Shown here piece after piece: positions 11,101 through 63,792 of a stretch of DNA of 64,000 bases (position 1 is the stretch's first letter; each line of letters begins with the position of its first letter). The notes under the pieces are model-generated. The model saw nothing but the letters and a program-made list of their open reading frames with translations. It was not told the origin of the DNA and did not search any database. Position numbers and translations under genes: made by a program. Origin of the DNA: Struthio camelus (Eukaryota > Chordata > Aves > Struthioniformes > Struthionidae); the NCBI RefSeq assembly GCF_040807025.1, contig NC_090968.1, positions 1,364,001 to 1,428,000 of the forward strand, written 5' to 3'.

Positions 11101-14100
11101 CCTTTGTGCTGCAGATGTCTTTTCACAGCACTGAAAGGGACTACTTGGGTTACAGAGTCTCCAGCAGTTGCAGTTAACCACAGAATAAGTTTCTACCTTA
11201 AAAGCGCACATGGGAAGCCCCTTCCAAACACCCACAAAGCAATTTTCAACACTGTGTTATAACATAAGACCGCTAAGACAAAAGATAAAAATCTACGGCA
11301 GCTACAGTGCGTGGCTGAGCGTGTTTTGTTTGCTGGTGAAATGATCCAGGCATGAAGGGGGAGCTGAGACTGCTTTTTCTGCAGCAATAACACGCTAGAT
11401 GAGGCCTGTAACTTGCTGAGGACGCTTAGCAGGCCTTGGAGGCTCCGTCTGTAGCAGAATGACTCTGTCCTCTGATGAAGCTTTCGTTGCTGACTGGTGT
11501 TTCCTTTCCTTTTCTTTCTCCTTGCCCCAGATCTGCACAAGAGATGAAGCATATGGAGAACATATCCAGCCTGTTTCATGGCAGCACCCCAGACGAGTAT
11601 CAGAGGCTAGAGTCCAAATCGGGGGAGCAGCCCTGGGAGATGATCATGGACAAGAAGCACTTCAAGCTCTGGAGGCGTCCGATTGAGGGCACCCACTTGT
11701 ATCAGTACCGAGGTAATTCGGCTCCTTGCCTGCTTGCATAGCTTTTTTTCCACATGAGTCACTGCAGAGTCCTCAGACGTGTGCTGCGTGCCTCCTGTCT
11801 GGCCTTTCTTTATAGGAACCTGAGAAAATGCAAAACTGTCGTCCTTTACTCCCCTCTTTACTGGTCCCATCAGCCCTTCAGAGTCGCCCTAGCCCTGACA
11901 CTTGCCTTGGAAAATGACTTTTCCTTGAAATCTTGCAGCAATGAGATTAAAAACTTGCTTATGCCTGTGACTAAAGCCTTTCTCTTTACTGCAGTATTTG
12001 GAACATACACAGATGTGACTCCCAGGCAGTTCTTCAATGTACAGGTGAGTACGTGTGAAATCTAGGCTGTACAATGTGTTAGAAATAAAGTGTTATTTCC
12101 CATTCCTTGCCGGAAGGGATGGGATGGAAAGAAAAATGGTGATTATCATCTTCTGTTTGTATCATTTGCATGATCTAAACCAGCTTAGATTAGATCCTAA
12201 TACAGATTAGAACGGGCCAAGTTATCCCATGTTTACTGGCTTCTCTGATCAGTCTCTGCTGCTCGTTCCTGCGGGAAGTGAAACATTGGCACACGCGGGC
12301 CCTTGGCCTTGATACGCTGCAGGACATGCAGGCATCATCCGGTTTCTGATCCTAGTTCTCCCTCTGCGTACCCTGCCGGGTAGCGTAGTGCACCTGTGCT
12401 TCCTCCTCTGCTGACATCTTTCAAAGTCTTTAATTTCTTGGTGGGTAAAACTTGGCCGTGACAGTTTGTTCCCCCAGGAGGAGGAAAAGGGATGGTTATC
12501 TTCCTTTAGTGGTGATATTGGTTATGCGTAGACTTTGCTGTGGTTCAGTCCCTTTTTCTTTCCAGCTGGACACTGAGTATAGGAAGAAGTGGGACTCACT
12601 GGTCATCAAGTTGGATGTCATTGAAAGAGACCTGGCCACTGGTTCGGAAGTGATTCACTGGGTAACTCACTTCCCGGTGAGTGATTCCTTCTCCTTTCCT
12701 GCTTCGGTTACCCTCCTCAACACCACACAAACGGCTAGCGAGATTGATTTCTGTCCTTTCCTTTCCGCAGTACCCTATGTATTCACGAGACTACGTATAT
12801 GTTCGACGGTACAGCGTAGACAAAGAGAACAATTTGATGGTACTAGTGTCACGGTACGTATTGTCAGTTCAACCTAGTCGAACTGTGTTTTTGCCAGGGT
12901 GTGAGGATGTGCTGTCTCCTGTGCCTCTGGTGAGGGTCACATCAGTCCTGCTTGCTGAAGGAGTCGAGCTTTTTATGTTACTAGTGACTCCCTTGGTAAC
13001 CAATAGAGTCATTTCAAAGCTTTGCCCCCGTTTCCTAGCTGTAGAACGGAAAATTCTGAGATGAACTGTAAAGAGCTGGGTACAGATTTTGTGAGCTTTT
13101 CTAAACGGCTGCAAAAACTCAGGGATCTGTTTGGAAAAAACAGCCTCCTCCTGTAGGGTGAAAACTATATTCCCTTAGTATCTGTCCTGGGTCAGCAGAT
13201 TTTGGTGTAATCCAGATCCAGAGCTTATGTTTTGAGGATGCCGCCCTTAGTTGTAATGTTCCCTTCTGTTGTGTCTCTTCCAGGGCAGTGGAGCACCCAA
13301 GTGTCCCAGAAGATCCTGAGTATGTTCGGGTCAGAACCTACGAGTCTCAGATGGTCATCCGTCCGCACAAAACATTTGATGAGGTGAGTTTTCAGATGGT
13401 CGGGGAAACGTAGAGGAAAAGCCACTTGCCGTTCTGAGCTCTTCACAAGAGAGCCATAAGGCAAGCAGCAACTCTTGTAAACACTTACGGTTGTTGTCCA
13501 AGCAGTAGTTTCCCTGGCTGTTGTCCATAACAGTAATCTAGGGTAAACAATATAGAGTCAGAAAAGAGGGTTCAGTTTGTTTCCTGAATGCTAACACTAG
13601 GAAACCCTTCCCTGCTTCCAGAAGTGAAACGTGCTGTTTGGAGAGGACTAAGAATTTTGACTAGGTAGCTTGAGACTCTCTCTAAAGGAGAGAGACAACT
13701 TCAGAGAACCAGACTCTTTTTTTAAAAAAAAAAAAAAAAAAAAACTTAAGCCTCTAAAATCTTGTCTCTTGTGCTTAACTTGCTCAGAACAAGTGCTACT
13801 GGATCTTTGCAGGATATCTAGAGCCTGAAGAGGGTGTACTGAGGCAGTGAAGTACTGGGGTGAATGACACCTTCCTCCTCCTAAAACCTTCCTCTGTACT
13901 TTCACTGGGTTTTCTATTGCTCTGTATCGCCATATCTCTTCCTCCTTAATACTTTGACCAAAGCCCTGCAGAGACAGTAGTGCTCGCTGTCAGATGTGAG
14001 CGGCCTTCTGTTCCGTTTCAAAAGGGACCGTAGAAAAACTGATCACACTTTGGTAAAAGCTGAATGTAGTATTTGTAGAGATGCCAACATTTTGATCAAA

Positions 14101-18587: not shown

Positions 18588-20821
18588 ATGGCTCTGGCTC
18601 GCAGTGTCTGGCTGCTCCTTAGCAGTATCTTTTGGCTGCTGGAAGGTAAGTGAAAAGGTGCTGAGGATTTTGGGGGGAGCATGAAGCTTTTTCCTCTTCT
18701 CCCCGTGTGTTATTTTGGCCACCGTGGCCCGGCTCAGCCTCTTGTCCCCTTGCAGGTGGCCCTGGGGGTGCGCAGCACACGGGCAGCCCCCAGCGTGGCG
18801 GCGGTGGCCCGCGGGGCGACGACATCCTCAGCATCAATGGAGGTGAGGGGCTCGGTGGTATTTCGGGGAGAGGGGGGAAGGAGGTCTGTCCTCGGCGTCT
18901 GGCACCCAAAGGGGCTCAGAGTGGGCTGGGGGCTGGTGGGAGCTGAGCTGAGCTGCCCCGTTCTCAGCCACCCTCCTCACTCTGCGTTTCCAGCACTTGC
19001 TCCACTCAAGGCGCCCGACAGCAGCTTCCTTGTCGAAGGGGACATCGTCCGGGCGGTGAGTGAGGGTGGCGGGGCCACCGCGGGGTGCCTACGGGGATGG
19101 TGCTGGCAGCCCCCAAGGCTGCTGCCGGCCGTTCGTCGTGCTCCTGAAGTCCTGGGCAGGAAAATGTGGCCCAGCCGGGTGGGCTCTCGCAGCTGGGTCT
19201 GCCCTGACATCTGCCCAACATCTGGCCCTGGGGACCCCCCCCCGCTAACGCATCGCTCGCCAGGATCCCTCCAGAGCGTTCGCGGCCGCGAACCCGAAAT
19301 GGCCGAAGAGAAGAGGTGTTGTCCAAATCCCCTACATCATGTCCGACCGATACGGTAGGTGACGTCTGGCTGCGTGGAGGTGGCTCCCCATGGGATGCAC
19401 CACGGCCGGGTCTTGAGCTGTTGGGTCTTCTCCTGCCAGACAACGCCAGCGTGAAGATCCTCGAGGAAGCGTTCGGCGACTTTGCCAGGCTCACATGCGT
19501 CCGGTTTGTCCCCCACTCCTACCAGCGGGACTTCGTCTCCATTGCTCCCATGGCTGGGTCAGTGGGCTCCTGCAGCCGCTCACCCCGGCAAGGGGGGTGA
19601 TGGAGTGGGGCGGAAGGCTGCAGCGTCATGTCGGTGCCCGTAGATGATGGATGATGCCCGCGGGTGATGGGGAGATGCATGCACACCAGCAGAGGATTTG
19701 TGTCTGTAGATGATGGACCCGTGCCCATGGGGTGATGGGGGACACATGCCCATGGGATGATGGGGAGATGCATGCCTGTTGGTGACAGGGGACATGTGCC
19801 TGCAGATGGACCTGTGCCCATGGGTGATGGGGAACATGCCCCCGTGGTTGATGGGGGAGGCACGCCCATGGGTGATGATGGACCCGTGCCTGTAGGCCAC
19901 GGACACATGCCCATCAGTGATGGGGAGGGTGAGGTGGCAATCCATAGCAGTAGTAGATGGACACGTGCCCATGGGTGATGGGACACCTGCCTGCAGTCAA
20001 CGGGGACGTGCCGCTTGACCACGGACGTGCCCCAGCTGGTGGTGGGGAGATGAGCGCCCCTGTCTCTTTGCTCAGGTGCTTCTCCAGCGTGGGCCGTGCC
20101 GGCGGGATGCAGCCGCTCTCCCTGGCGCCCGCCTGCCTGCAGCGGGGCAAGGGGGTGGCCCTCCACGAGCTCATGCACGTGGCTGGTTTCTGGCACGAGC
20201 ACAGCCGCGCCGACCGGGATGACTACATCAGCATCTCCTGGGACCACATCCTGCCCGGTGAGCCGCCGGCATTGCCTGAACCCGACCTGGCGCCGGGGTC
20301 CGGCGGGGAGGATGAAGCCATCAGGCGCCTTCTGGCTTCTTGGCAGGTTTTGAGGGCAACTTCATGAAATCCCGGACGCCCAACATGCTGGTGGGCTACG
20401 ACTACTCCTCCGTGCTGCACTACAGCAGGTGAGCCCGGGCCTGCCGCCGCGCTTCCTCCTCTTCTCCAAAACCGCTATTAATTTTTTTAATTCCCCCCCC
20501 AGATATGCCTTCAGCCGGAGCGGGGCGCCCACCATCACGCCGCTGCGGACCCCGGCGGCCGTGCTGGGGCAGCGGCGGCAGCTGAGTGCCTCCGACGCCG
20601 CCCGGGTCAACCTGCTCTACGGCTGCCGGGGGGCCGCGAGGCCGAGTCCCCGCGTCCTGCCCCCTCCGACCGCCGAGGGGACCTCCAGCTCTGCGGCCAC
20701 CGCCCGCCACCCCGGGGCGTCGCATCCGTCGCCGGTGGCCCCGACGGAGACGGCCGCGCCGGGGACCGGAGGGGGACGCGCCGGGGGACGCACGGCGCCG
20801 GGGGCCACGACGAGCGAATAA
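18588..20821 (+). CDS. ASTL: Astacin-like metalloendopeptidase (ovastacin type)
   Basis: Eight exons: 18588-18645, 18756-18842, 18994-19055, 19264-19354, 19440-19557, 20076-20257, 20347-20428 and 20503-20821, giving 332 aa. Exon 1 is a signal peptide. The pro-region has VEGDI (about residues 60-64), whose Asp is the likely zinc switch, and the catalytic domain follows the basic KWPKRRGVV site. The zinc site [13 protein letters not shown] is at residues 169-181, and the four astacin-domain Cys are present (TCVRF, GCFSS, ACLQ, YGC). It follows human ASTL closely, for example FSSVGR-GGMQ, RADRD, FSR-G-PTITPL and QLSASD. In mammals this egg protease cleaves ZP2 after fertilisation. Oddity: the Met-turn reads SSVLHY, so the family methionine is Leu223. 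The C-terminal tail is Pro/Ala/Thr-rich and shorter than in human. Confidence 0.9.
19620..20000. repeat. Minisatellite in ASTL intron 5
   Basis: Imperfect tandem units of about 25-35 bp built around GATGATGGGGA and CCCATGGGTGATGG, filling most of the 518-bp intron. Confidence 0.85.
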
Positions 20822-34290: not shown

Positions 34291-34438
34291 CCCTCCTTGG
34301 GCCTAATCCTGCCCCCTAGGGCCCGCTCCTGCCTTCTCAGGCCCGGCGCTACCCCACAGGGGCCAGCTCCTGCCCCACTGGCCTCGTCCTGCCCCCAAAT
34401 CCCCCGGCGCGGCGAGGCAGCGGGTGCCGCAGAGAGGC

Positions 34439-34444
34439 TTTATT
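34439..34444 (-). terminator. IL36RN: IL36RN-like poly(A) signal
   Basis: AATAAA on the minus strand, 28 bp beyond the stop codon, so the 3' UTR is very short. Confidence 0.75.
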
Positions 34445-34471
34445 GGGGGCGGTGGGGGCGGCGGCGGGGGG

Positions 34472-37376
34472 CTACTTGCGCTGCAGGTAGAAGGTGGTGA
34501 TGGCGGTGGCGGCGGGCTGCGCCGTGAGGGCCAGCGCCTCGCCGGGCCGCGGCGCCGTGCTCAGGAAGTGCCCGGGGAAGGCGGCCGCCTCGAAGGTGTG
34601 CGTGGAGCCGCTGAAGGTCTTGTAGAAGGTGAAGCGGTTGGCCTCGGCGCCCCGGGTGAACAGCTCCAGCACCCCCACGTCCTGCCGGCGCGGCACGCAC
34701 GGCGTCACGCCGCCAGCCTCGGGGACACGCCGCCTCGGGGCCACCTCACCCCCCCCGCTGCCCCCCACCCCGGGTGCTGCTGGCTCTGGGTTGCCTTGGC
34801 TCAAGGTGCAACCGCCTTGAGGTGCCACCACCCTGAGGTGACACGGCCATGGGGTGCCACCACCTTGGGGTGCTACTGGCCATGGGTGGCGCTGCCTTGG
34901 GGTGACATTGGCCTTGGGGTGCCTCCAGCCTCAGGGTGCCCCCACCTGATGGTGGCATCACCTTGGGGCGCCTCCCCCTCGGGGTGACACCGGCCTTGGG
35001 GAGCCACCACCTCAGGGTGACCCTAGTCTTGGGGTGCCACTGCCTCGGGGTGCCACCGCCTCAGGGTGGGACCGCCCCAGCTTGCCGCTGGCTTTGGGTC
35101 ACCCTGACTTAGGGTGCAACCACCATGGGGTGCCACCAGCCTCAGGGTGCCCCACCTTGGGTTGCCCCTACCTCACGGTGCTCTCCACTTTGGGGAGCCT
35201 CACCTCGGAGTGCCTGACCTTGCGGTGCCCTCCACCCTGGGATGACCCACTTCAGGGCGCCCTCCACCATCAGGCACTACGATCTTGGGTTGCCCCCACC
35301 TTGGGGTGCCCTCCACCTCGAGATGTCTCACCTTGAGCTGCTCAGTCTCAGGGTAGCCTCCACCTTGGGGCACCTTCCACCCTCAGGTGCCCCCACCTTG
35401 GGGTGCCCCATCTTGGGTTGCCTCCACCTTGGGCCCCACCTTGAGTTACCTCCACCTTGAGCTACCTCCATCTTGGGGAGCCTTACCTTGAGATGCCCCC
35501 ACCCTGGCATGCCCCACCTGGGGATGCCCCCACCCTGGGGTGCCCCGTGCAGCACTTACCTCCAGCTGCAGTTGGGGCTCGGGGCCGATGCCGCAAGAGA
35601 GTGCCTGGGTGCCCCCACGGATGCCCACGATGAGGGGACAGCGTTTGCGCTCCAGGTGCCGGTTGGGCACCACGCTGATGTGCTCTGCGTGGAGCCGGTT
35701 GTCAGGGCGGATGGGCATCAGGCCGCCCCACCGCACCACCCTGGCACCCGAGGGATCCCCCTCCCGCTCTGGCACCCACCTTCCTGGGCGGCGTTGGCGC
35801 CCTGCAGGTTGACGGCCACCAGGCGCCCATGCTCCAGGCACAGCACCTTCTGGTCGGTGTCGCGCACCCGGTAGTGGTAGGGCTGTGGTAACAGCTCCTC
35901 CACCTCCGGCCTCTCGGCTATGGTGAAAGTGTCCTCTGAGGTGGTGGACACTTTTGCAAGAGAGTGTGGGGATAGGACACATGAGGACAGGCATGTGGGG
36001 ACAGGGCCCGTGGGCTTCATGGGGATGGGGACGTGGGCAACAGGGGGCACATGGACATTGGGGGGCACGTGGACATCACAGAGGCGGGCATGTGGCCTTC
36101 ATGGAGATGGGGCACCTGGGGACAGGGCATGTGAGCTTCATGGGGACGGGGACATGGGCAATGTGGGGCACACAGGCTTCATGGGGACAGGACATGTGGG
36201 GACAAGGCGTGAGGGTTTTGTGGGGCCGGGCACTGTGGGGACAGGGCATGCGAGCTTCATGGGGACGGGGACATGGGCAATGTGGGGCACACAGGCTTCA
36301 TGGGGACAGGACATGTGGGGACAAGGCGTGAGGGTTTTGTGGGGCCGGGCACTGTGGGGACAGGGCATGCGGACATCACGGGGACAGGCATGCAGGCATC
36401 GTGGGAACGAGGCATGTGGGGACAAGGTGTGAGGGCATCATAGGGACATGGACATAGGCAACATGGACACAGGGGAACAGGCATGGGAGCATCATGGGGA
36501 CGGGGCACAAGAACATTGCAGGGACGGGGACATGGACATCGTGGGGCACTAGGACATCATGCGGACAGGCATATGGGCTTCACAGGGACAGGGCACGTGG
36601 GGACAAGGCATGAGGGCTTCATGGGGATGAGCAAGCACATGGGCAACATTGGCCACATGGACATCATGGGGACGAGCACGTGGGCACCATGGGGACAAAA
36701 CACGAGGGCTTCATGGGGATGGGGCATTGTGGGGACAGGACGCGTGGGCATCACAGGGATGGAGACATGGGCACCGTGGGGCATGTGGCCGTCACAGGGC
36801 TGGGGCACGTGGGGACGAGCAAATGGGCGTCGTGGGGCACGCGGACATCAGGGGGACAAAGCACTCAGGCATGGGGCACATGGGGACGGACACCCGGGCA
36901 CGGCGGGGTGCTGCGGGCGCTACCTTTGCCCAGGAACTGCTCAAACAGTGCCTCCATGTCGGGGTCGACGACGGACACCGTGGGGCTGCCGGCACCCAGC
37001 ACCGTGCGGGCGCCCAGTGGTCTGCCGGCACCCGGCACCGTGAGGGCATCCGGTAGGTGCCACCAGGGCTGGCATCGGCCCCAGCTCTCCCTGGCCCTGC
37101 ATCCCGCCCTGGGGGCCTGCGAGCGACACAGACGTCAGGGTGGGCCGGGGCTGGGTGCTGCAGCCCGCCGGCACCCGGGCACCCCGTGCCCACCTTACCT
37201 GGTACCTCCCCAGCCTGGCCCAGCCTGTGGCGACACTGTTGGAAAGTGAAAAAAGAGGGATGAGAGCGGGCCGGGCGCCGTGCCAGGATGACTCAAGCCC
37301 TGAGCACAAGGCGTGGAGAGCCGCCGCCGCCCTGCCGTGGGACTCACCTCAGCGCCGGTCTGGGTGCCTGTGACAT
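34472..37376 (-). CDS. IL36RN: IL-1-family cytokine, IL36RN/IL1F10-like, with long pro-region
   Basis: Six coding exons in transcription order: 37376-37348, 37235-37199, 37116-36924, 35935-35780, 35684-35560 and 34681-34472, giving 249 aa. The beta-trefoil core includes RVRDTDQKVL, ISVVPNRHL, IVGIRGG, LSCGIGPEPQLQLEDV, RFTFYK and FEAAAFPGHFLST. ISVVPNR and SCG-G-EP match IL36RN, while LQLEDV and EA-RFTF match IL1F10. There is no signal peptide, as in IL-36 proteins. The upstream exons have strong splice sites (acceptor TTTTTTCACTTTCCAACAG) and stay in frame, adding a pro-region that contains DPDMEALFEQF. Splice phases 2-0-1-1-0 equal those I recall for IL1B. The last three exons are solid; the first three are inference, and translation could instead start at the Met of MEALFEQF (36957). 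IL36RN is the best but not the only name. Confidence 0.75.
34780..35555. repeat. Minisatellite in last intron of IL36RN-like gene
   Basis: Short units of about 15-30 bp of the type CCTTGGGGTGCCACC and CCTCAGGGTG fill most of the intron between 34682 and 35559. Confidence 0.9.
35950..36910. repeat. Minisatellite with 120-bp duplication in IL36RN-like intron
   Basis: G-rich units of about 18-35 bp (GGGGACAGGGCATG, TTCATGGGGACGGGGACATGG). A block at about 36124-36243 is repeated almost exactly at 36244-36363. Confidence 0.9.
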
Positions 37377-37613
37377 GGTAGAGCCTGCGCGAGAGAGCAG
37401 GCAGCACGTGGGTAAACCGGGCAGCGCGCCACCGGGGATCCCCCCCCCCCAAAAAGCTTGCCCTCCCAGCACTGCATGCCATCTGTTGTCAGTAGGCTTC
37501 AGAGTGAACGCTCAGCAGCCGTTGCCCAGGCCTCCCCCTGCGGACCTGCAGCTGTGTCGCGCCTGAGGCCATGAGCACCCAGCCCTTCCCCACCCCGGCG
37601 TCGGCAGCGATAC

Positions 37614-37699
37614 CTGCAATCCCAACAGCCTCCAAAATCCTGACACGGGCTGTGCCGTCCTCTTTGCCGCCCACCCGAAGCGGCAACACCTCTTATAGG
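37614..37699 (-). promoter_or_regulatory. IL36RN: Candidate promoter and noncoding exon 1 of IL36RN-like gene
   Basis: On the minus strand CCCTATAAGAGG (about 37690-37701) could be a TATA box, followed about 80 bp later by a possible donor (TTGCAG/GTATCG, exon end 37614). That would be a short noncoding exon with an intron of about 230 bp before the ATG exon, as in IL1B. The donor is weak, so this is tentative. Confidence 0.35.
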
Positions 37700-37889
37700 G
37701 ACTGGAGCGGAGGGAGGGGACAATCCGCCCGGCTAATTGTGCAGGAAGGATGTGGCACGGGGAGACAAACAGGAGCGCCGGGGGTGAGCGGGCTGGGCCG
37801 GGCGCAGGCGCACCCGTGGGTGGCGGGGCAGCCAGGAAGGCAACGATGGGGAAACACCGGGGCCCAGCCCTCTGAACCCAGGCACCCCG

Positions 37890-38990
37890 TTCCCACCGCG
37901 GCCGGATGGCCTGTCCCCGTGTGCCCCATGTGCCCCATCCTGATGATACCTGCGTGCCCCATCCCCGTGTTGCTCGTGTGCCCCGTCCCTGTGATGTCCA
38001 TCTGCCCCCTCTACCCCATCCCCGTGACACCTGTGTGCCCTGTCCCCATGTTGCCCATGTGCTCTGTCCCTGTGTTGTCCATGTCCCGTGTGCCCCATCC
38101 CTGTGATGTCCGTGTGCCCCATCTCCATGATGTCCCTGTGCCCTGTGTGCCCCATCCCTGTGTTGTCCATGTGCCCCATCCCCATGGTGTCTGTGCCCCG
38201 TGTGCCCCATCCCCATGACACCTGTGTGCCCCATCCCTGTGATATCCGTGTGCCCCATCCCGATGACATGTGTGTGCCCTGTCCCCATGATGTCCATGTG
38301 CTCTGTCCCTGTGTTGTCCATGTCCCGTGTGCCCCATCCCTGTGATGTCCGTGTGCCCCATCCCCATGGTGTCTGTGCCCCGTGTGCCCCATCCCCATGA
38401 CACCTGTGTGCCCCATCCCTGTGATATCCATGTGCCCCATCCCGATGACATGTGTGTGCCCTGTCCCCATGATGTCCATGTGCTCTGTCCCTGTGTTGTC
38501 CATGTCCCGTGTGCCCCATCCCTGTGATGTCCGTGTGCCCCATCTCCATGATGTCCCTGTGCCCTGTGTCCTATCCCCATGACACCCGTGTGCCCCATCC
38601 CCGTGATGTCCGTGTGCCCCATCCCCATGGTGTCTGTGCCCCGTGTGCCCCATCCCCATGACATCTGTGTGCCCCATCCCTGTGATGTCCCCATGGTGTC
38701 TGTGCCCCATGTGCCCCATCCCTGTGACACCTGTGTGTCCCATCCCTGTGATATCCGTGTGCCCCATCCCGATGACACGCATGTGCCCTGTCCCCATGAT
38801 GTCCACGTATCTGTACCCGTGTTGTCCGTGTCCCGTGTGCCCCATCTCCATGATGTTCCTGTGCCCTGTGTGTCCTATCTCCATGTTGCCCACGTGCCAC
38901 ATCCCTGTGATGTCCATCTGTCCTGTGTGCCCCATCCCTGTGACACCCATGCACCCTGTATGCCCCATCCCCACAGTGCCCCTGTCCCCA
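37890..38990. repeat. GTGCCCCATCCC minisatellite between the two IL-1-family genes
   Basis: Units of about 18-19 bp (CCCGTGTGCCCCATCCCTGT, GATGTCC) with higher-order copies. The segment containing TGTTGTCCATGTCCCGTG recurs near 38070, 38310 and 38490. It occupies most of the spacer upstream of the IL36RN-like gene. Confidence 0.95.
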
Positions 38991-39389: not shown

Positions 39390-40936
39390 TCAGCAGAGCT
39401 GGAAGTAGAAGTCGAGGACGTGGGTGGCGTCGGGGCCGCGCGAGAGCCCCAGCGGCTCGTGGGCGCGGGCCGAGGTGCAGAGGAACCAGCCGGGGTTGGC
39501 GGCCGACTCGAAGCGCCACAGCCCGTCCTTGTAGGAGCGGAAGAAGGTGAAGGGTGCCGAGGCCTCGCCGGCGCCGGGCAGCGCCGTGATGTCAGCGTCC
39601 TGCGCGGGGGTGAGCGGCAGCGTTGGCGGTGGGTACGGCTCCGTCACCGACGTGTCCCGGCGCCGCGATGCCCGTGTGCCCCGTCCCCAAGATGTCCCAT
39701 GTCCACCATCCCCACGATGCCCATGCGCCCTGTCCCCAAGACGCCCCACGTCCCTCATCCCTGCGATGCCCATGATGCCCTGTCCCCAAGATGTCCCACG
39801 TCCCCCATCCCCATGATGCCTGTGCGCCCCGTCCCCAAAACGTCCCACGTCCTCCATCCCCACAATGCCCAGGTGCCTGATCCCCAAGAAGTCTCATGTC
39901 CCTCATCCCCACAATGCCCGTGCACCCTGTCCCCAAGATGTCCCACGTCCCCCATCCCCATGATGCCTGTGCGCCCCGTCCCCAAAACGTCCCACGTCCT
40001 CCATCCCCACAATGCCCAGGTGCCTGATCCCCAAGATGTCTCATGCCCCCCATCCCCGCAATGCCCGTGCACCCTGTCCCCAAGATGTCCCATGTCCACC
40101 ATCCCCGCGATGCCCACGTTCCCCATCCCCGTGATGCCCCGTGTGCCTTGTCCCCATGATGTCCACTTGCCCCATCCCCATGATGTCCCATCCCCAAGAC
40201 GTCCCATGTCCCCCATCCCCGTGATGCCTGTGCGCCCCATCCCCAAGACGTCCCACATCACCCATCCCCACGATGCCCACCTCCCCCATCCCTAAGATGC
40301 CCCGTGTGCCCTGTCCCCACGATGTCCACTTGCTCCATCCCCATGATGCCCCATCCCCGCGACACCCCTTGCCCCCAACGCCAGCCACACCGGCGTGCCC
40401 CGTCCCCGCGCCGCCGGGGCACCCGCCCTCACCTCGAGCCGCAGCGTGGGCTGGGGGGCAGCGCGGCTGGCCAGGCAGCGGGTGCCGTTCTGGATGCCCA
40501 GGATGACGGGGAGCCGGGCTTGGGCGAAGGAGCGGTTGGGCACCCAGAAAACTTTCTCTGCGGGGGCAACGAGAGGGGTGTCAGGGCACCCCGGGGTGCC
40601 CCGCGCCGCCCCGCTGCCCGCCGCTCACCTTCCAGGGCAGCGTTGGCGCCTTGCAGGTGCCCGGCCACCAGCTGGTCGTTGAGCAGGTAGAGCGACTTCT
40701 GGTCCATGTCCCAAATCCTGCCGGGGGGGGGGGGGGAACGGGGATGGAAAAATGCCAGCGGTGACCGGCATAGCCGCGTTCCCCCCCCCAAAAATCCCCC
40801 CACCCCATTTTGCTCCTTACCGGTATTTAAAGACTTTGGTCTGCAGGGTGGGAGCGTGGCACAGGGTGAAGCCTTCGGCCTCTGCGCAGAGGAAGAGGAG
40901 GGTGACGGCGAGCGCGGCGCAAGGGCGGCACGCCAT
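39390..40936 (-). CDS. IL1RN: Interleukin-1 receptor antagonist
   Basis: Four exons in transcription order: 40936-40821, 40717-40629, 40557-40433 and 39599-39390, giving 179 aa. It begins with a hydrophobic signal peptide (CAALAVTLLFLCAEA), the mark of the secreted receptor-blocking form. The beta-trefoil core is close to mammalian IL1RN: YRIWDMDQKSLYLLNDQLVA, GHLQGANAALEEK, VPNRSF, VILGIQNG and PTLRLED, and the family signature is FESAANPGWFLCT. It ends in LDFYFQLC. The known role is to occupy the IL-1 type 1 receptor without recruiting the accessory chain. The first exon lies just downstream of a TATA box. The third intron holds a minisatellite. Assignment over IL-36 relatives rests on the signal peptide and the WDMDQK-LYL-N-QLVAG block. 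Confidence 0.93.
39650..40380. repeat. Minisatellite in IL1RN intron 3
   Basis: Units near 18 bp (CATCCCCATGATGCC, GTCCCCAAGATGTCCCA) with a higher-order copy of about 147 bp: GATGCCTGTGCGCCCC occurs at 39815 and 39962. Confidence 0.92.
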
Positions 40937-51518: not shown

Positions 51519-54500
51519 ATGCCGGGATCCCTCGCGCTCGCCGGCGCCGTGCTCGGCACCCTCCTGGTGCTGGTAGGTGCCTTGGGTTGGGGGGGGTGGT
51601 CAGGGTGGCCGAAATCGCGGCGATGCCAAGCCGGAGGGGACGGGATCGGGGCGGCGGAGGGGAGGGAGGGTGAAGCGAGGTTGCACCCGCCCCGGGGACC
51701 AAACCGGAGGGTCCGTTCGGAGAGGCTGGGGGTGGCCGAACGGGCGGGTGCCACCGGTGCCAGGCGCCCTCCGTGCCGCCGCCGCAGGCCGCGCCGACGC
51801 TGACGCCCGTGCACCGCGCCGGCTACTGCGCTTTCTACGGCGAGTGCGGCAAGAACCCGGAGGTGAACGTCTCGCTGGTGCCCTCCAAGGTGCCCTGCCT
51901 GTCCAACACGCCGGCGCGGCCGGCCACGCCAGCGCTGCTGGCCCAGCTGCGAGCCGTGTGCCCCGAGCTGGTGGCGGGCGGCAGCGCCAACGACACCTTG
52001 GTGTGCTGCTCGCTGGCGCAGCTCAACTCCCTGCAGCTCAGCGTGGCGCTCTCGAGCGCCGTGCTGGCCCGCTGCCCGGCCTGCGCCAGGAACTTCGCCA
52101 ACATCTACTGCCGCAACATCTGCAGCCCCGACCAGAGCCTCTTCACCAACGTCACCCGCGTGGCCAACGTCACGCTGGTGCCGGGCCTCAGCCAGCTCGC
52201 CGTCCTCGAGTACCAGTGTTTTTACGACCAGGCTTTCGCCGAAGCCGCCTTCGCCTCGTGCCAGGGCGTGCGGCTGCCCAGCACGGGCGGCTACGCCATC
52301 GACGCCATGTGCGGGCGCTACGGGGCCAAGCTGTGCACGGCGCAGCGCTGGCTCGACTTCCAAGGCGACAAAAGCAACGGCTTGGCCCCGCTGCAGATCG
52401 ACTTCCAGCTGGTGCCCAACGGCACCCGGCCCGGCGGCGACCTGGAGCCGCTGAGCGGCCGCGCCTGGCCCTGCAGCGAGCCGCTGGACGCCGCCGGCGA
52501 GCCCTGCTCCTGCCAGGACTGCGCCGAATCCTGCCCCGCCGTGCCGGCGCCGCCGGGTCCCCGGCCCCCTTTCCGCTTGGGCGCCGCCGACGGCGCCCTG
52601 GTCCTCTGCTGCCTGCTCTTCGCCTTCCTCGTCCTCCTCTTCGGCACCGGCGCGGCGGCGCGACGCTGCGTGCGGCGGAAGCGGCCGGGGCCGGGGACGC
52701 GGCGGCGGGCGTCGGGTTGCGCCGCCTGTCTCGGCCGCGTCACCCACGTGGCGCTGGCGGGCGCTTTCGGCAAATGGGGCACCCTGGTGGCCCGGCACCC
52801 GGCGGCGGTGCTGGCGGTGGCGGCGGCGGCGGCGGGCGCCCTGGCCACGGGCATGGCCACCCTGCGCCTGGTGACGGACCCCGTGGAGCTGTGGTCGGCG
52901 CCCGAGAGCCAAGCGCGGCAGGAGAAGGCGTTTTACGACGCCAACTTCGGGCCTTTCCTGCGCTCCAACCAGGTGATCGTGCGGGCGCCGGGGCGCCTGG
53001 CGGCCACCTACGACTCGGTGCTGCTGGGCGCCAAGAACTTCAGCGGGGTGCTGGCGGACGAGGTGCTGCGGGCGCTGCTGGAGCTGCAGGAGCGGCTGGC
53101 GGCGGCGGCCGTGTGGGTGGAGGCGGCGGGCCGGGAGGTGACGCTGCGCGACGTCTGCTACGCCCCCCTGAACCCGGCCAACGCCAGCCTGGCCGACTGC
53201 TGCGTCACCAGCGTCACCCAGTACTTCCAGAACAACGGCACCCGCCTGGCCATGACCGCCACCCAGACCGCGGGCAAGAGGACGGGCACCGTCGACTGGC
53301 GCGACCATCTCCTCTACTGCGTCAAGTGGGTGGCGCCCCCGGGGGGGGGCTGTTTGGAGGGGGTCGGGTGCCCGCGCTGGGCACGGTGGGTGCCCAGGGG
53401 ACACCGGGCTGTGGGGCTGCAGGTGGCCAAGCCAGGGTGATGCCTGCGTGGGGCAGGGTGCCCAAGGGACCCCGGGCGGCGGGGTTGGGTGATGCCCTGC
53501 GTGGGGCAGGGTGCCCAAGGGACCCCGGGCGGCGGGGTTGGGTGATGCCCTGCGTGGGGCAGGGTGCCCAAGGGACCCCGGGCGGCGGGGTTGGGTGATG
53601 CCCTGCGTGGGGCAGGGTACAGGGCACGGTGGGGGCCCGGGAGACCCCGGGCGGTGGGATTGTGGGTGGCCAAGCCAGGGTGGTACCTCCATGGGGCAGG
53701 GTGCGGGACCCATCCCAGCACCCTGGGCGCGGGCGCCATGGGGTCGGGATGGGCACCGCGGCCGGAGGGCACGGCTGCCCGCTCACCCGGCGCCTGTGTC
53801 CGCACCAGCTCGCCGCTCTCCTTCAAGGACATCACGGCACTGGAGCTGAGCTGCATGGCTGAGTATGGCGGGCCCGTCTTCCCCTTCCTCACCTTCGGCG
53901 GGTACCCAGGTGAGCCGGGTGCCCGCTGGCACCCCGGTGGGCAGGGAAACCGTGGGCATGGGTGCTGTGGGCATCACTGCCACAGGTGCCACGGGCATCA
54001 CTGGCATGGGCGCCTCGTGCATCGCTGTCACGGGTGCCGCATGTGGTACCACCATGGGTGCTGTGGATATTCTTGGCATGGGTGCTATGGGCATCACTGC
54101 CTTAGGTGCCTTGGGCACCACTGGCACGGGTGCCATGTGCCTCGCTGCCACAAGTGCTGCAGGCATCGCTGGCGCGGGCACCCTGCACATTGCTGCTGTG
54201 GGTACCACATGCATCGCCACTACGGGTGCTGCACACATTGCTCCCATGGGCACCACGGGTATCATTGCCACGGCTGCCACGTGCATCACTGGCATGGGTG
54301 CTGCCTGCATCACCAGCATATGTGCTGCATGCATTGCTGGCATGGGTGCTGCATGCATCGCCATCGCCAGCACGGGTACTGCATGAATCACCAGCATGGG
54401 TGTCATGTGCATCACCAGCATGGGTGCTGCATGAATCACCAGCGTGGGTGTCGTGCATCGCCAGCATGGGTGCTGCATGAATCACCGGCATGGGTGTCAT

Positions 54501-57500
54501 GTGCATCGCCAGCATGGGTGCTGCATGAATCACCAGCGTGGGTGTCGTGCATCACCAGCATGGGTGCTGCATGAATCACCGGCGTGGGTGTCGTGCATCG
54601 CCAGCATGGGTGCTGCATGAATCACTGGCGTGGGTGTCATGTGCATCGCCAGCATGGGTGCTGCATGAATCACTGGCATGGGTGTCATATGCATCACTGG
54701 CGTGGGTGTCATGTGCATCGCCAGCATGGGTGCTGCATGAATCACTGGCATGGGTGTCATATGCATCACTGGCATGGGTGCTGCCTGCATCACCAGCGTG
54801 GATGCATGTGCATCGCCAGCACGGGTGCTGCATGCATGGCCGGCATGGGTGCCACGTGCATCACCGGCACGGGCGCTGCCGCCCCGGGGGCCGCGGGCGG
54901 GCGCTGACGGCCGTGCCCGCAGGCTCCGAGTACACGGAGGCCGAGGCGCTCATCGTCACCTACTCGCTCAACAACTTCCCGCGCGACGACGCCCGCTTCG
55001 AGTGGGTGCTGCGCTGGGAGGAGCGCTTCCTCGCCATCGTCCGCGACTTCCAGCGCACCCACGGCCCCAACCTCTCCGTGGCCTTCATGGCCGAGGTAAG
55101 CGGGTGCCCGCCGCCGCCGCGGGCACGGGGTGGGGGGGCGCCGCCGGGCGCTCAGCCGCCCTTGTGCCCACAGCGCTCGCTGGAGGACGAGATCAACCGC
55201 ACCACGGGCGAGGACGTGCCCATCTTCGCCATCAGCTACCTCGTCGTCTTCGCCTACGTGGCCGTGGCGCTGGGCGAGTACACGGCCTGGCGCCGCGTCC
55301 TGGTAAGGCGCCTCCGTCCCCCCTCCTGCTCCCTCCCGTCCTCGGGTGCCGGAGGTGGGGGAGCACCCAAGGGTGCCCGGCGGGCCCTAAGCGGGTGCCA
55401 CGGCCCTGCCCGCAGGTGGAGTCCAAGGTGACGCTGGCGCTGGGGGGCATCGCCGTGGTGCTGGGCGCCGTCTTCGCCTCCATGGGCTGCCTGGCCTTCA
55501 TGGGGCTGCCCTCGTCCCTCATCATCCTCGAGGTGGTGCCCTTCCTCGTGCTGGCCGTGGGCGCCGACAACATCTTCATCTTCGTGCAGGAGTACCAGGT
55601 GGGCGGCAGGGCCGGGCGCGGGGACCCCCACGGGGCGCCGGGCATGGGGGGCACGGCTGGGTATCGGTGTCCCCATGGGGCACGTGGGCATGGGTGGATG
55701 GGGGCACAGGGACCCCCGTGGGGCATGTAGGGATGACTGGGCATGGAGTCCTCATGGGGGTCCCTATGGAGTGTGGGGGTGCAGCTGGGCATGGGAGTCC
55801 CCAGGTGGCACGTGGCCATGGGGGACGCTTGGGCATGGGGGTCCCGGGGGGGCACAGAAGACCCCACTGGGCATGAGAGCAGCACCCCAGGCTGGCCGAT
55901 GGGTGCCCGCGGGGCAGCCCGTGCACCCCCCGGGGCAGTGGGTGCCCAGTGCTGGCACCTGGCCTCACCACCGTGGCCCAGCAGCAGTCGGTGCGGGAGC
56001 CGGGCGAGACGCGGGAGCAGCACATCGGGCGGGTGCTGGGGCAGGTGGCACCCAGCATGCTGCTGTGCAGCCTCTCCGAGGTCATCTGCTTCCTCCTGGG
56101 TGAGCCCGGGCACGGGGACACGGTGGGCACGGTGCATGCCATGGGCGTGGGGACACGGTGGGCACGGGGACATGATGGGCACGGGGATGCGATGGGTATG
56201 GTGCACATGATGGGCATGGCGCATGCCACGGGCATGGGGACATGGTGGGCACGGGGACGCGATGGGCATGGTGCACATGATGGGCATGGCGCATGCCATG
56301 GGCGTGGGGACACGGTGGGCACGGGGACATGATGGGCACGGAGACGCAATGGGCATGGTGCACAGCTTGAGGATGGGGACGTGATGGGCACGGTGCACAA
56401 GACCCGCATGGGGATGGGGCGCTGCAGGCACGCGGATGCGATGGGCACGGTGCACATGATGGGCATGGCGCATGCCATGGACATGGGGACACAGCGGGCA
56501 CGGGAACAGGGTGGGCACGGTGCACACCATGGGGACACAGCGGGCATGGGAACAGGGTGGGCATGGTGCACACCATGGGCATGAGGACAAGATGGGCACG
56601 GAGACATGACAGGCACGGTGCACGAGATGGGCATGGTGCATGTCACGGGCACAGGGACACAAGGTGCATGGTGCCCACCATGGGCATGGGGACACAAGGT
56701 GCACGGGGGCACAGTGGGGATGGTGCACACCACAGGCACGGGGACATGGTGAGCACAGGGACATGGGCACGGTGCACACCTGAGCACGGGGTCAGGCCCA
56801 GCGCTCACGGCCCGGTGCCCGCAGGCTCCCTCTCCTCCATGCCCGCCGTCCGCACCTTCGCCCTCACCGCGGCCGTGGCCATCGCCTTCGACTTCCTCCT
56901 CCAGATTTCGGGCTTCGTGGCCCTGTTGGCCCTCGACGCCCGCCGGCAGGAGGTACCTGCGCCCGGGGGAGGGTCTGGGCTGCTGGGGTGGGCACAGGGT
57001 GGGCGTGGGGTGCCCCTGGGGCAGGAGGGTGCCCAGGGTGGGCACCAGGTGCCATGGGGCAGGAGGGTGACCAGGGTGGGCACAGGGCACCCTGGGGCAG
57101 GAAGGTGTCCAGGGTGGGCATGGGTGCTCCTGAGCTGGGGAGGGCCTGGGTGGGCACCGGGTGTCCTGGGGCAGGAGGGTGCCCAGGGTGGGCTCGGGGT
57201 GGGCACAGGGTGCCCCTGAGGTGGGGGGTGCCCAGGATGGGCACAGGGCATCCTGGGGGCAGGAGGGGACCCGGGGTGGGCAGGGGGCACCCCAGGGGCA
57301 GGAGGGGGCCCAGGGTGGGCACAAGGTGCCACGGGGCAGAAGGGTGCTCAGGGTGGGCATGGGCTGCGCATGGGTGCCCCAGGGAAGGAGGGTGCCCAGG
57401 GAGGGCTCAGGGTGGGCATGGGGTGCCCCAGGGAAGGAGGGTGCCCAGGGAGGGCTCGGGGTGGGTATGGGGTGCCCCTGAGGCAGGGGGTGCCCAGGGT

Positions 57501-60500
57501 GGGCGTGGGGCACCCCAGGGGCAGGAGGGGGCCCGGGATGGGCATGGGGCACCCCGGGGGCAGGAGGGGGCCCAGGGTGGGCACGGGGTGCCCACGGCCC
57601 CGCCGTGCCCGCAGGCCGCCCGCTTCGACGTGTGCTGCTGCCGGGGGCTGGAGAAGGGGGCGCCCGGGGGGCCGGGCACCGGGGTGCTGCGCCCGCTCAT
57701 GCACCGCTACTACGCGCCCCTGCTGCTGCACCGCGTCACCCGGCCCCTCGTGGTGAGCCGGGGGCTGGGGGGGTACTAGGGGGGCTGGGGGTGCAGGGGG
57801 AACATAGGGACCTGGGGGGGTTCCTTGGGGGACTGGGGGGGTCCTGGGGGGTCTAGAGAGGTCCTGGGGGGGTCTGAGGGGGTCCTGGGAGACTGAGAGT
57901 GTCCTGGGGGTCCTGGAAGGGGTCCTAGGGGGTCTTGAGGGGTCCTGGGGGGTCTAGGGAGGTTCTGGGGGGTCTGGGAGGTCCTGGGGGACTGGGGGGG
58001 TCCTGGGGGGTCTAGGGAGGTTCTGGGGGGACTGGGGAGGTCCTGGGGAGGTGTAGGGAGGTCCTGGAAGGGTCTTGGGCGGTCCTGGGGGACTGGGGGG
58101 GTCCTGCGGGACTGGGGGGTCCTGGGGGGTCTAGGGAGGTTCTGGGGGGTCTAGGGAGGGCTTGGGGGACTGGGGGGGTCCTGGGGAGGTCCTGGAGGAC
58201 TAGGGGGTGGCCTAGGGGTGGGGGAAACATGGGGGGCACCCTGAGGTGCTCGGCTCAGGCTCAAAGGTGACTTTGGGGTGCTGGGTGGTGGGGGGGGAGC
58301 ATGTGGGCACCCAGAGGCTCTTGGCCGGTGGCACCGATGGGGGGAGTCTGCCAGCACCCTGGAGCAGGTGCCGGGGTGCCCCTTAACGCCGGCTTGCCCC
58401 CCCCCCACCCAAAAAACCAGATGCTGCTCTTCCTCTTCGTGGCCTGCGCCGGACTCTACCTCACGCTGCAGGTGTCCGTGGGGCTGGACCAGGAGCTGGC
58501 CATGCCCAAGGTGGGCGCGCGGCGGGGGCGCGCGGGGCGGGCGGGCGCGACGCCCGCGGGCGCCCGGCGGCTGACGGCTGCCCGCAGGACTCCTACATGC
58601 TGGAGTACTTCGCCGCCCTCAACAAGTACCTGGCCGTGGGGGTGCCCACCTACTTCGTCACCACCAGCGGCTACAACTTCTCCTCGGCGGCCGGCACCAA
58701 CGCCGTCTGCTCGAGCGCCGGCTGCGACGCCGACTCGCTCACCCAGAAGATCGAGTACGCCACCCGCTTCCCGGACGTGTGAGTGGGGCGGGTGCAGCGG
58801 GTGGCAGCGGGTGCAGCGGGCGCCCGGGGTCCCGGCATCTTCTCGTTCCTCCATCTCCAGGTCCTTCTTGGCCATCCCGGCCACGTCGTGGGTGGACGAT
58901 TTCCTCGACTGGCTCAACCCTACGGGGCGCTGCTGCCGGGTGCATCAGTTCGGGTCGCAGCAGGGCGAGTTTTGCCCTTCCACCAGCGGTGAGCGGGGCG
59001 CCGGGTCGGGGGGCCGGGGGCCACCCTAGGGTGCGGGCAGCGCCTGAGCCGCAGCGCTGCCCGCAGACGCCCTCAGCTGCCTGCTGGGCAAGTGCCTCAA
59101 CACGTCGCGGCGGCCCACGGTGGACGAGTTCGAGCGCTTCCTGCCCTGGTTCCTCTACGACCAGCCCACGCTGCAGTGCCCCAAGGGGTAGGCGGCACCC
59201 GCCGCGGGTCCCGCGGGTGCACGGGCGGCGGGGAGGGGGTCTGCGGGGCGCCTAGGGGCAGGGGCGGGTGGGCACGTGGGCGCAGGGACTCAGGTGCCTG
59301 CACACGGGCACGTGCCAACGGGCCCAGCAAATGGGCACGAGTGTTTTGGGCACACACGCCTGGGTGCAGCACAGGGGTGCACACACGTGGGCACGGGGAC
59401 TCGGGCACACACGCATGGGTGCAGGCACATGGGTGCACACGTGGGCACACACGCCTGGGTGCAGCACAGGGGTGCACACACGTGGGCATGGGGACTCGGG
59501 CACGCACGCATGGGTGCAGGCACAGGGGTGCACACACGTGGGCACGGGGACTCGGGCACGCACACATGGGTGCAGGCACAGGGGTGCACACGTGGGCACA
59601 CACGCCTGGGTGCAGCACATGGGTGCACACACATGGGCACAGGGACTCGGGCACGCACACATGGGTGCAGGCACAGGGGTGCGCACACACACGGGCACAG
59701 GCCATTTGGGCAGATGCAGATGGGCACGTGCACACACGGGCAAGGCTACTTGGGCGCCTGCACACGGCACAAGTATTTTGGGTGCATGCCCATGGGCACA
59801 GATTTTTGGGCACCCCCAGGGGTGCCCACCCTCACCCGCTCCCCCTGCACCTGCAGCGGCCTGGGTGCCTACGACACCTCGGTGAAGATGGACCCCAACG
59901 GCACCATCGTGGGTGAGTTTGGGGTGGGGGTGGGGGGGGTGGGCGAAGGCCAGGGCACCCATGGGTGCCCGCCTGAGCCCGGCACCCTCCCGGCAGCCTC
60001 GCGGTTCATGGCGTACCACCGGCCGCTGACCAACTCGCAGGAGTACACGGAGGCGCTGCGGGCGGCCCGCAAGCTGGCCGACAACATCACGGCCACCCTG
60101 CGCCAGGTGCCCGGCACCCCCCCCGACTTCCGCGTCTTCCCCTACACGTAAGCGCCCGCCGCCCCCGCGGGGCGCCCGGTCGGGATGAGCGTGGGTGCCC
60201 GGTTTGGGGTTCAGCTTGGGTGCTTGGGTAGAGGTGCCCAGTTGGGGGTTTAGCATAGGTGCCAGGTTGGGGTTCAGCATGGGTGCTTGGTTAGGGAGGG
60301 TGTTTGTTTTGGGGTACCTGGTTGAGGTTTAGCGTGGGTGCTTCGTTAGGGGGGTGCCAGGTTGGGGTTCAGCATGGGTGCCAGGTTGGGGTTCAGCATG
60401 GGTGCCTGGTTTGGGGTACCCGGTTGGGGTTCAGCATGGGTGCCAGGTTGGGGTTCAGCATGGGTGCCTGGTTTGGGGTGCTCAGCTGGGGTTCAGCATG

Positions 60501-63086: not shown

Positions 63087-63792
63087 CTAGAGGTACTTGT
63101 AGATGACCTTGGTGGGCACCGTTTGCACCTCCAAGCGGACGGGGCACTTGTAAAAGTGGGAGAGGAGGGTCTCGGCGTAGCCGACGAGGAAGTAGAGCTT
63201 GCTGGGCGCCAGGCTCTGCACCACCACCAGGCACACCACCAGCAGGTTGGCGCGTCGCTTGAGCACCACCTCGTTGGCCAGGCAGCCGGGGAAGGTGCCG
63301 TAGAGGAACTTGCGCAGGAAAACGTCCTCCACCGTCCGCTCGGCCGCCCCGGTTTCCCCGTCCAGGTTACCTGCGGGCAGAGCGAGGGTCGGCGGCGGGG
63401 AGCCCCGGGCGAGCGCGGTCCTCCTCGCGGCCCCGCGGGGGCGACGCCGACGGAGGGGAGGGGACGCCGGGGGCGGCTCACCGGTGTGCAGGGAGAGCCA
63501 GCCCTTGCGGTGGGCGATGTAGTGCGGGGCGTGCGCCTTCTCGTAGGTCACCGGCTTGTCCCCTTTGCCCACGCGCACCCGGGCCGCTCGGCTCTGCCGG
63601 GGAGGGGAGCAAAGCGGGGCGGGGGCGTCAGCGCTGCCCTGGCCCCGGCGGCCGAGCGGGGCCGGGGGGGCCGGGGCCGCGCCAGGCGGGCGCCGACGGT
63701 ACCTTGAGGCAGACGGGGCTGGCGTGGAGGTGGCGGCGGGCGCCGAGGGCAGGGCTGCCGCAGCTGCGGCCCCAGGTCGCCGCCGCCGCCGC
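63087..63792 (-). CDS. MRPS24: Mitochondrial ribosomal protein S24 (uS3m), 5' end outside window
   Basis: Three exons in transcription order: 63792-63703, 63593-63482 and 63370-63087, about 161 codons of a protein that is about 167 aa in human. The sequence LHASPVCLK is followed by [78 protein letters not shown] and the terminal VIYKYL, all nearly as in mammals. It belongs to the small subunit of the mitochondrial ribosome. The first exon, with the start codon and the start of the mitochondrial targeting peptide, must lie beyond position 64000. The upstream acceptor is CTGTCCAG next to a GCG run. Confidence 0.95.

What the first reader, a model, noticed from the sequence alone, without database searches (positions are those of the whole stretch)
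34472..37699. IL36RN/IL1F10-like gene with an IL-1beta-type exon plan and a long pro-region
The trefoil core resembles IL36RN and IL1F10, whose mammalian forms have little or no pro-region. Here three small upstream exons (29 coding, 37 and 193 nt) have strong splice sites and stay in one frame, giving 249 aa. The intron phases 2-0-1-1-0 equal the pattern I recall for IL1B. The pro-region contains DPDMEALFEQF, which recalls the acidic DLSALLEEVF-type stretch of the avian IL-1beta precursor. A TATA element and a possible noncoding exon 1 complete the IL1B-like plan. It may be a bird cytokine keeping the ancestral IL-1 layout, or a pro-form with its own processing.
Basis: partly seen in the sequence, partly recalled or inferred. 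Interest (0 to 1): 0.72.

Follow-up and report, generated by a model that had tools for sequence, protein, structure and literature searches.

The report
Bird IL36RN with IL-1beta-type exons
This is the bird version of a known anti-inflammatory cytokine gene (IL36RN), still laid out in exons like its pro-inflammatory relative IL-1beta and possibly made with a long leading segment that the mammalian protein lacks; whether that segment is really translated is not yet shown.

Summary
The gene is real: an IL-1-family gene on the minus strand (about 37668-34472), 1.7 kb from IL1RN. [quoted passage not shown] The two upstream micro-exons are almost certainly spliced: with cut-offs set just under exon 2's own scores, only three 20-60 nt exon-like pairs exist in 64 kb on both strands, and these are two of them. 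Intron phases are 2-0-1-1-0, the published IL1B arrangement. One correction: exon 5's better acceptor is 35950, not 35935, giving 254 aa rather than 249. The end of the pro-region (DMEALFEQFLGK) resembles the IL-1beta pro-domain. The weak point is the first ~68 codons: open and in frame with the first AUG, but with codon bias only slightly above shuffles, no match to Pfam's IL-1 propeptide model, and a published chicken gene with only four coding exons and two 5'UTR exons. Translation may instead start at Met76 (179 aa). No bird orthologue could be compared; the host-genome search did not complete (11 of 11). Verdict: apparently a new variant of a known gene, with the pro-form plausible but unproven.

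The parts
37691..37697 (-). TATA element (TATAAGA) of the presumed promoter
   Evidence: read by eye; not tested for function
37614..37668 (-). possible noncoding exon 1 (5' end assumed about 30 nt after the TATA element; donor GT at 37613, CAG|GTATCG)
   Evidence: by eye; no ATG inside
37348..37384 (-). exon 2, 37 nt; first AUG at 37376 (TCTACCATGT)
   Evidence: acceptor rank 3 of 198, donor rank 5 of 223 in 34400-38000; one of 3 such exon-like pairs in 64 kb
37199..37235 (-). exon 3, 37 nt
   Evidence: acceptor rank 1 of 198, donor rank 4 of 223
36924..37116 (-). exon 4, 193 nt; 3' end encodes VSVVDPDMEALFEQFLGK with the alternative start Met76
   Evidence: acceptor rank 13 of 198, donor rank 23 of 223; codons 69-86 coding-like z 3.6, codons 23-68 z 1.4; IL-1beta-type motif
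35780..35950 (-). exon 5, 171 nt, start of the trefoil core; alternative acceptor at 35935 in frame (5 aa shorter)
   Evidence: chicken IL36RN forward primer of PMC8742010 has its best place on the minus strand here, 16 of 20
35560..35684 (-). exon 6, 125 nt, trefoil core
34472..34681 (-). exon 7 coding part, 210 nt with stop TAG
34439..34444 (-). AATAAA polyadenylation signal
   Evidence: by eye
39390..40936 (-). neighbouring IL1RN gene (signal-peptide form, 179 aa, read by hand)
   Evidence: Pfam IL1 9.4e-15; chicken IL1RN primers of PMC8742010 match 17 and 19 of 20

Best explanation
It is the bird IL36RN gene (IL-36 receptor antagonist), next to IL1RN, still built on the seven-exon IL1B plan. 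Most likely the mRNA joins exons 1 to 7, ribosomes start at the first AUG in exon 2, and a leaderless 254-residue precursor is made. About 105 N-terminal residues precede a beta-trefoil. The trefoil would occupy the IL-36 receptor without recruiting the accessory chain, and the leading segment would have to be trimmed, by analogy with mammalian IL-36 proteins, near Leu106 (nine residues before the VRD that aligns with human MKD). Shown: exon chain, phases, open frame, family of the core, neighbours. Inferred: the species group, the mRNA, the start codon, translation of the pro-region, trimming, antagonism.
For: Core closest to IL-36 receptor antagonist entries: 1.4e-32 and 7.5e-32; IL-1 family member 10 1.7e-27; IL-1RA 6.8e-21; IL-1beta 8.3e-16 and weaker. 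e2 and e3 splice sites are exceptional. Phases 2-0-1-1-0 equal published IL1B phases. Of the four transcripts tried, only 1-2-3-4-5-6-7 joins the first AUG to the core; in the other three the upstream AUGs open other frames that run past Met76. Codons 1-77 score above open shuffles (z 2.66, 0.4% reach it), though most of that comes from the last nine codons. The 12 residues before the exon 4/5 junction resemble recalled IL-1beta pro-domain stretches: own-shuffle P 0.0036; 1 of 1734 12-mers from other, mostly recalled, proteins scores as high. Neighbours IL1RN and a PSD-like gene recall the human cluster as I remember it.
Against: Codons 1-68: LLR -0.37 per codon against -0.68 (sd 0.18) for open shuffles, z 1.75, 3.6% of shuffles as high; the core stretches give z 3.7 to 7.6, the N part of exon 5 2.6 and the IL1RN signal-peptide exon 3.2. 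A whole-window coding scan with 25-codon windows reports none of e2-e4; e2 and e3 are too short for it, and it also misses e6 and the IL1RN signal exon. No Pfam IL1_propep match at E up to 10, while recalled chicken and human IL-1beta do match. An HMM of three recalled IL-1beta pro-regions scores -1.2 bits, reached by 104 of 2000 shuffles. Chicken is reported with four coding exons. The tree leaves IL36RN, IL1F10 and IL1RN unresolved.
Confidence: 0.52

Rival explanations
1. Short form: e1-e3 and the 5' part of e4 are 5'UTR, and translation starts at Met76 (gacATGg), giving a 179-residue IL-36RN with about 30 extra residues ahead of the trefoil. The small exons are decayed remnants of ancestral pro-region exons.
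For: [quoted passage not shown] Coding signal begins near codon 56-69 and continues. Met76 has G at -3 and G at +4.
Against: In the four transcripts tried, three or four AUGs precede Met76; in the full transcript the first is in frame with A at -3. The upstream frame is open, and frame 0 is the best of the three frames for codons 1-68, if weakly (-0.37 against -1.13 and -0.52).
Confidence: 0.38
2. Orthologue of IL1F10 (IL-38), or an older gene ancestral to both IL36RN and IL1F10. This concerns the name and overlaps with either start-codon model.
For: IL1F10 comes right after the IL36RN entries (1.7e-27); the tree leaves IL36RN, IL1F10 and IL1RN unresolved.
Against: IL36RN entries score 116 and 114 bits against 100 for IL1F10; the chicken IL36RN forward primer has its best place in exon 5, 16 of 20, and read by hand codes for QPYHY, present here.
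Confidence: 0.15
3. A pro-inflammatory IL-36 or IL-1beta-like agonist that needs cleavage, rather than an antagonist.
For: IL1B-type exon plan and pro-region-like motif.
Against: Core is closest to antagonists; in the tree it groups with IL36RN, IL1F10 and IL1RN (92/88) and not with IL36A/IL36G or IL1B.
Confidence: 0.06

Closest known systems
Chicken IL-36RN (Gibson et al., as reviewed in PMC4090809)
   Same: IL-36RN-like core; N-terminus much longer than human; published chicken forward primer (PMC8742010) has its best place here and codes for QPYHY
   Different: Chicken reported with four coding exons and two 5'UTR exons; here up to six coding exons plus a possible noncoding first exon. The original paper was not found in the library, so the chicken sequence was not compared.
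IL1B of turtle and other vertebrates (PMC4880838, passages)
   Same: Seven exons, coding phases 2-0-1-1-0; acidic-hydrophobic motif near the end of the pro-region (recalled sequences)
   Different: Core much closer to IL36RN; N-terminus not acidic (against recalled IL-1beta); no Pfam propeptide match
Mammalian IL36RN (PMC8009184, PMC4090809, passages)
   Same: Best core match; four coding and two noncoding exons; in a cluster with IL1RN (recalled)
   Different: Human protein starts just before the trefoil and needs only Met removal; PMC8009184 says human IL36RN and IL1RN share one exon/intron organisation, which they do not fully do here
IL1RN in this window
   Same: Adjacent, same strand, same family
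   Different: Signal-peptide exon; first core exon begins at R|IWD; no IL1B-type 171-nt exon in the signal-peptide form read

Membership tests
IL36RN (IL-36 receptor antagonist) | IL-1 beta-trefoil domain | tested here: met
   Pfam PF00340 3.7e-13, 49.6 bits against a cut-off of 25
IL36RN (IL-36 receptor antagonist) | Sequence closest to IL36RN among family members | tested here: met
   top five of 41 PDB matches are IL36RN (also named IL-1 family member 5) or IL36RN chimeras
IL36RN (IL-36 receptor antagonist) | Groups with IL36RN in a tree | tested here: inconclusive
   ten-row tree, most rows recalled: joins IL36RN, IL1F10, IL1RN at 92/88 but unresolved among them
IL36RN (IL-36 receptor antagonist) | Lies in a cluster with IL1RN | tested here: met
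   IL1RN about 1.7 kb upstream on the same strand
IL36RN (IL-36 receptor antagonist) | Blocks the IL-36 receptor | not testable with these tools
   needs recombinant protein
IL1B | Coding intron phases 2-0-1-1-0 | tested here: met
   against PMC4880838; that paper calls the organisation similar in known IL-1 family members, so it is not specific to IL1B
IL1B | Core closest to IL1B | tested here: not met
IL1B | Pfam IL1_propep in the pro-region | tested here: not met
   no match at E up to 10; recalled chicken IL-1beta 1.4e-5, human 2.7e-41

The most novel reading that the evidence does not exclude
Birds make IL-36 receptor antagonist as a long, IL-1beta-style pro-protein, so the antagonist branch of the IL-1 family descends from a gene with a full pro-region that mammals lost, and bird IL-36 inhibition is switched on by proteolysis.
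Probability: 0.35. Interest if true: 0.6.

Novelty: new variant of a known kind. Interest (0 to 1): 0.4.

Why it matters
The papers seen argue the descent of IL-36/IL-1 antagonists from an IL-1beta-like ancestor from synteny and sequence similarity (PMC4090809 section 14 and passages of PMC5861070). An antagonist gene that keeps the IL1B phases and a trace of the IL-1beta pro-domain would be an anatomical link. If the long form is translated it would imply a latent antagonist in birds, testable in chicken keratinocytes, where IL-36RN and IL-1RN are said to belong to the common differentiation programme of amniotes (PMC8742010, passage).

Tried and rejected
IL1F10, agonist and IL1B identities were weighed against the core similarity and tree. 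Scans of bacterial/archaeal genome contigs and of viral contigs gave no relative (44 and 7 pattern stretches, none confirmed by tblastn); neither collection is meant to hold birds. A first codon-bias run used repeat-rich introns and flanks as background and one training segment in the wrong frame; one search dropped that segment and used dinucleotide shuffles, and only one search is relied on. Recalled human IL1B exon lengths put two junctions two residues away from the aligned junctions here, so I do not claim an exact exon-size or motif-distance match. ARAGORN, run with the bacterial code, found no tRNA. PAX8 (recalled sequence) gave no match in the window. No structure prediction was submitted, because a spliced protein is not read letter for letter from one stretch of DNA. 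Paper searches that bear on what is in print. Seven papers were opened: six seen only as passages (PMC8742010, PMC12108812, PMC5861070, PMC7144542, PMC4880838, PMC8009184), and PMC4090809 as passages, abstract and one whole section.

Full report
What was checked. All sit where stated. A simple splice-site matrix of my own ranks 35950 14th and 35935 32nd of 198 acceptors. I prefer 35950.

Are the small exons real? In 34400-38000 the exon 3 acceptor ranks 1st and the exon 2 acceptor 3rd of 198; the donors of exons 3 and 2 rank 4th and 5th of 223. Exon 4's own sites are modest (acceptor 13th, donor 23rd), and the matrix also ranks the acceptors of core exons 6 and 7 low (38th and 72nd), so it is specific rather than sensitive. 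Over all 64 kb and both strands, with cut-offs set just under exon 2's own scores, only 3 pairs could bound an exon of 20-60 nt: exons 3 and 2, and one on the plus strand at 11995-12044, which reads like a STARD7 exon by recall. The cut-offs were chosen after seeing the scores, but the result is stark. I regard both exons as spliced.

What is the gene? Pfam finds the IL-1 domain (3.7e-13). Against PDB sequences the top five of 41 matches are IL-36 receptor antagonist (IL-1 family member 5) or chimeras of it (1.4e-32 at best), then IL-1 family member 10 (1.7e-27), IL-1RA (6.8e-21) and IL-1beta (8.3e-16 and weaker). Published chicken primers (PMC8742010, passage) were placed: IL36RN forward has its best place on the whole minus strand in exon 5, 16 of 20, and read by hand codes for QPYHY as here; IL1RN primers match 17 and 19 of 20 in the next gene. 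The IL36RN reverse primer does not fit: its best place, also 16 of 20, lies upstream of the forward one, so 16 of 20 alone is not proof. That the window is from a bird is inferred from this.

Neighbours. IL1RN (signal-peptide form) lies at 40936-39390 on the same strand, about 1.7 kb away. A PSD-like Sec7/PH gene lies downstream, and TMED, DDX56, NPC1-like and MRPS24 genes upstream. PMC4090809 notes that eight genes flanking non-mammalian IL-1 loci are found at one locus on human chromosome 7 (section read). Translated searches with this protein and a three-sequence IL-36RN profile found no further IL-1 family gene in the window.

The IL1B-like plan. PMC4880838 states that turtle IL-1beta has seven exons and the typical (II, 0, I, I, 0) arrangement (passage). 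The same paper calls this organisation similar to known IL-1 family members, so it is a family trait as well as an IL1B trait. The signal-peptide form of the neighbour IL1RN lacks it. The 12 residues before the exon 4/5 junction, DMEALFEQFLGK, match recalled IL-1beta pro-domain stretches of chicken, human and mouse better than 99.6% of 20,000 of their own shuffles; 1 of 1734 12-mers from other proteins (mostly recalled) scores as high; and they are the best place in the pro-region by a wide margin. A profile of the whole pro-region from the same three sequences is not convincing: 104 of 2000 shuffles score as high. Pfam's propeptide model does not match. So homology of the motif is likely, that of the rest is not shown.

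Is the pro-region protein? For: in the seven-exon transcript the first AUG (A at -3) is in frame with the core; the three skipping transcripts tried put other-frame AUGs ahead of Met76 whose frames run past it. Codons 1-77 score above open shuffles (z 2.66), mainly because of the last nine. Against: codons 1-68 have little coding signal (z 1.75 against open dinucleotide shuffles, 3.6% as high), while codons 69-86 (z 3.6), exon 5 (2.6 and 5.5), exon 6 (3.7), exon 7 (7.6) and the IL1RN signal exon (3.2) have it. An open frame of this length is expected in 30% of shuffles, so in frame and open by luck is near 10%. The whole-window scan does not report exons 2-4, but exons 2 and 3 are shorter than its 25-codon window and it also misses exon 6 and the IL1RN signal exon. 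PMC4090809 says chicken IL-36RN has four coding and two 5'UTR exons and a much longer N-terminus than human (passage). A four-coding-exon gene starting at Met76 would fit that description, so the published chicken model favours the short form or an incomplete 5' end.

How it most likely works. A TATA promoter drives a short mRNA; a leaderless cytokine accumulates in the cell and is released without a signal peptide; the trefoil occupies the IL-36 receptor. PMC4090809 relays that mammalian IL-36 proteins are most active when cut nine residues before a conserved three-residue motif, and that there is no evidence for the same processing in birds; the rule would point to Leu106 here. All of this beyond the exon anatomy is inference.

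Novelty. The gene is known in chicken, and its long N-terminus too. I saw no statement in the passages read that an antagonist keeps the full IL1B phase pattern; the original chicken paper was not found in the library (id from memory), so this is not a claim of absence from print.

Noticed in passing
window 20107-20429 (+): Astacin metalloprotease exons (Pfam Astacin 8.3e-17 for 20107-20262; the second segment by eye).
   Followed up: partly
window 11995-12044 (+): Strong 50-nt exon-like pair whose translation by eye, FGTYTDVTPRQFFNVQ, reads like STARD7 by recall.
   Followed up: no
window 51794-62428 (+) and 63144-63563 (-): NPC1-like gene (Pfam NPC1_MLD 3.2e-27 for one segment) and MRPS24 (1.8e-30), after TMED and DDX56 genes: a block that, by recall, lies on human 7p13, joined to a PSD4/IL1RN/IL36RN block that lies on human 2q.
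   Followed up: partly
window 36965-37045 (-): Exon 4 holds two near-copies of a GC-rich unit by eye (TVPGAGRPLGAR / TVLGAGSPTVSV in translation), in a region rich in minisatellites.
   Followed up: no
window 38033-38788 and others: 12,485 of 64,000 bases are tandem repeats by TRF.
   Followed up: no
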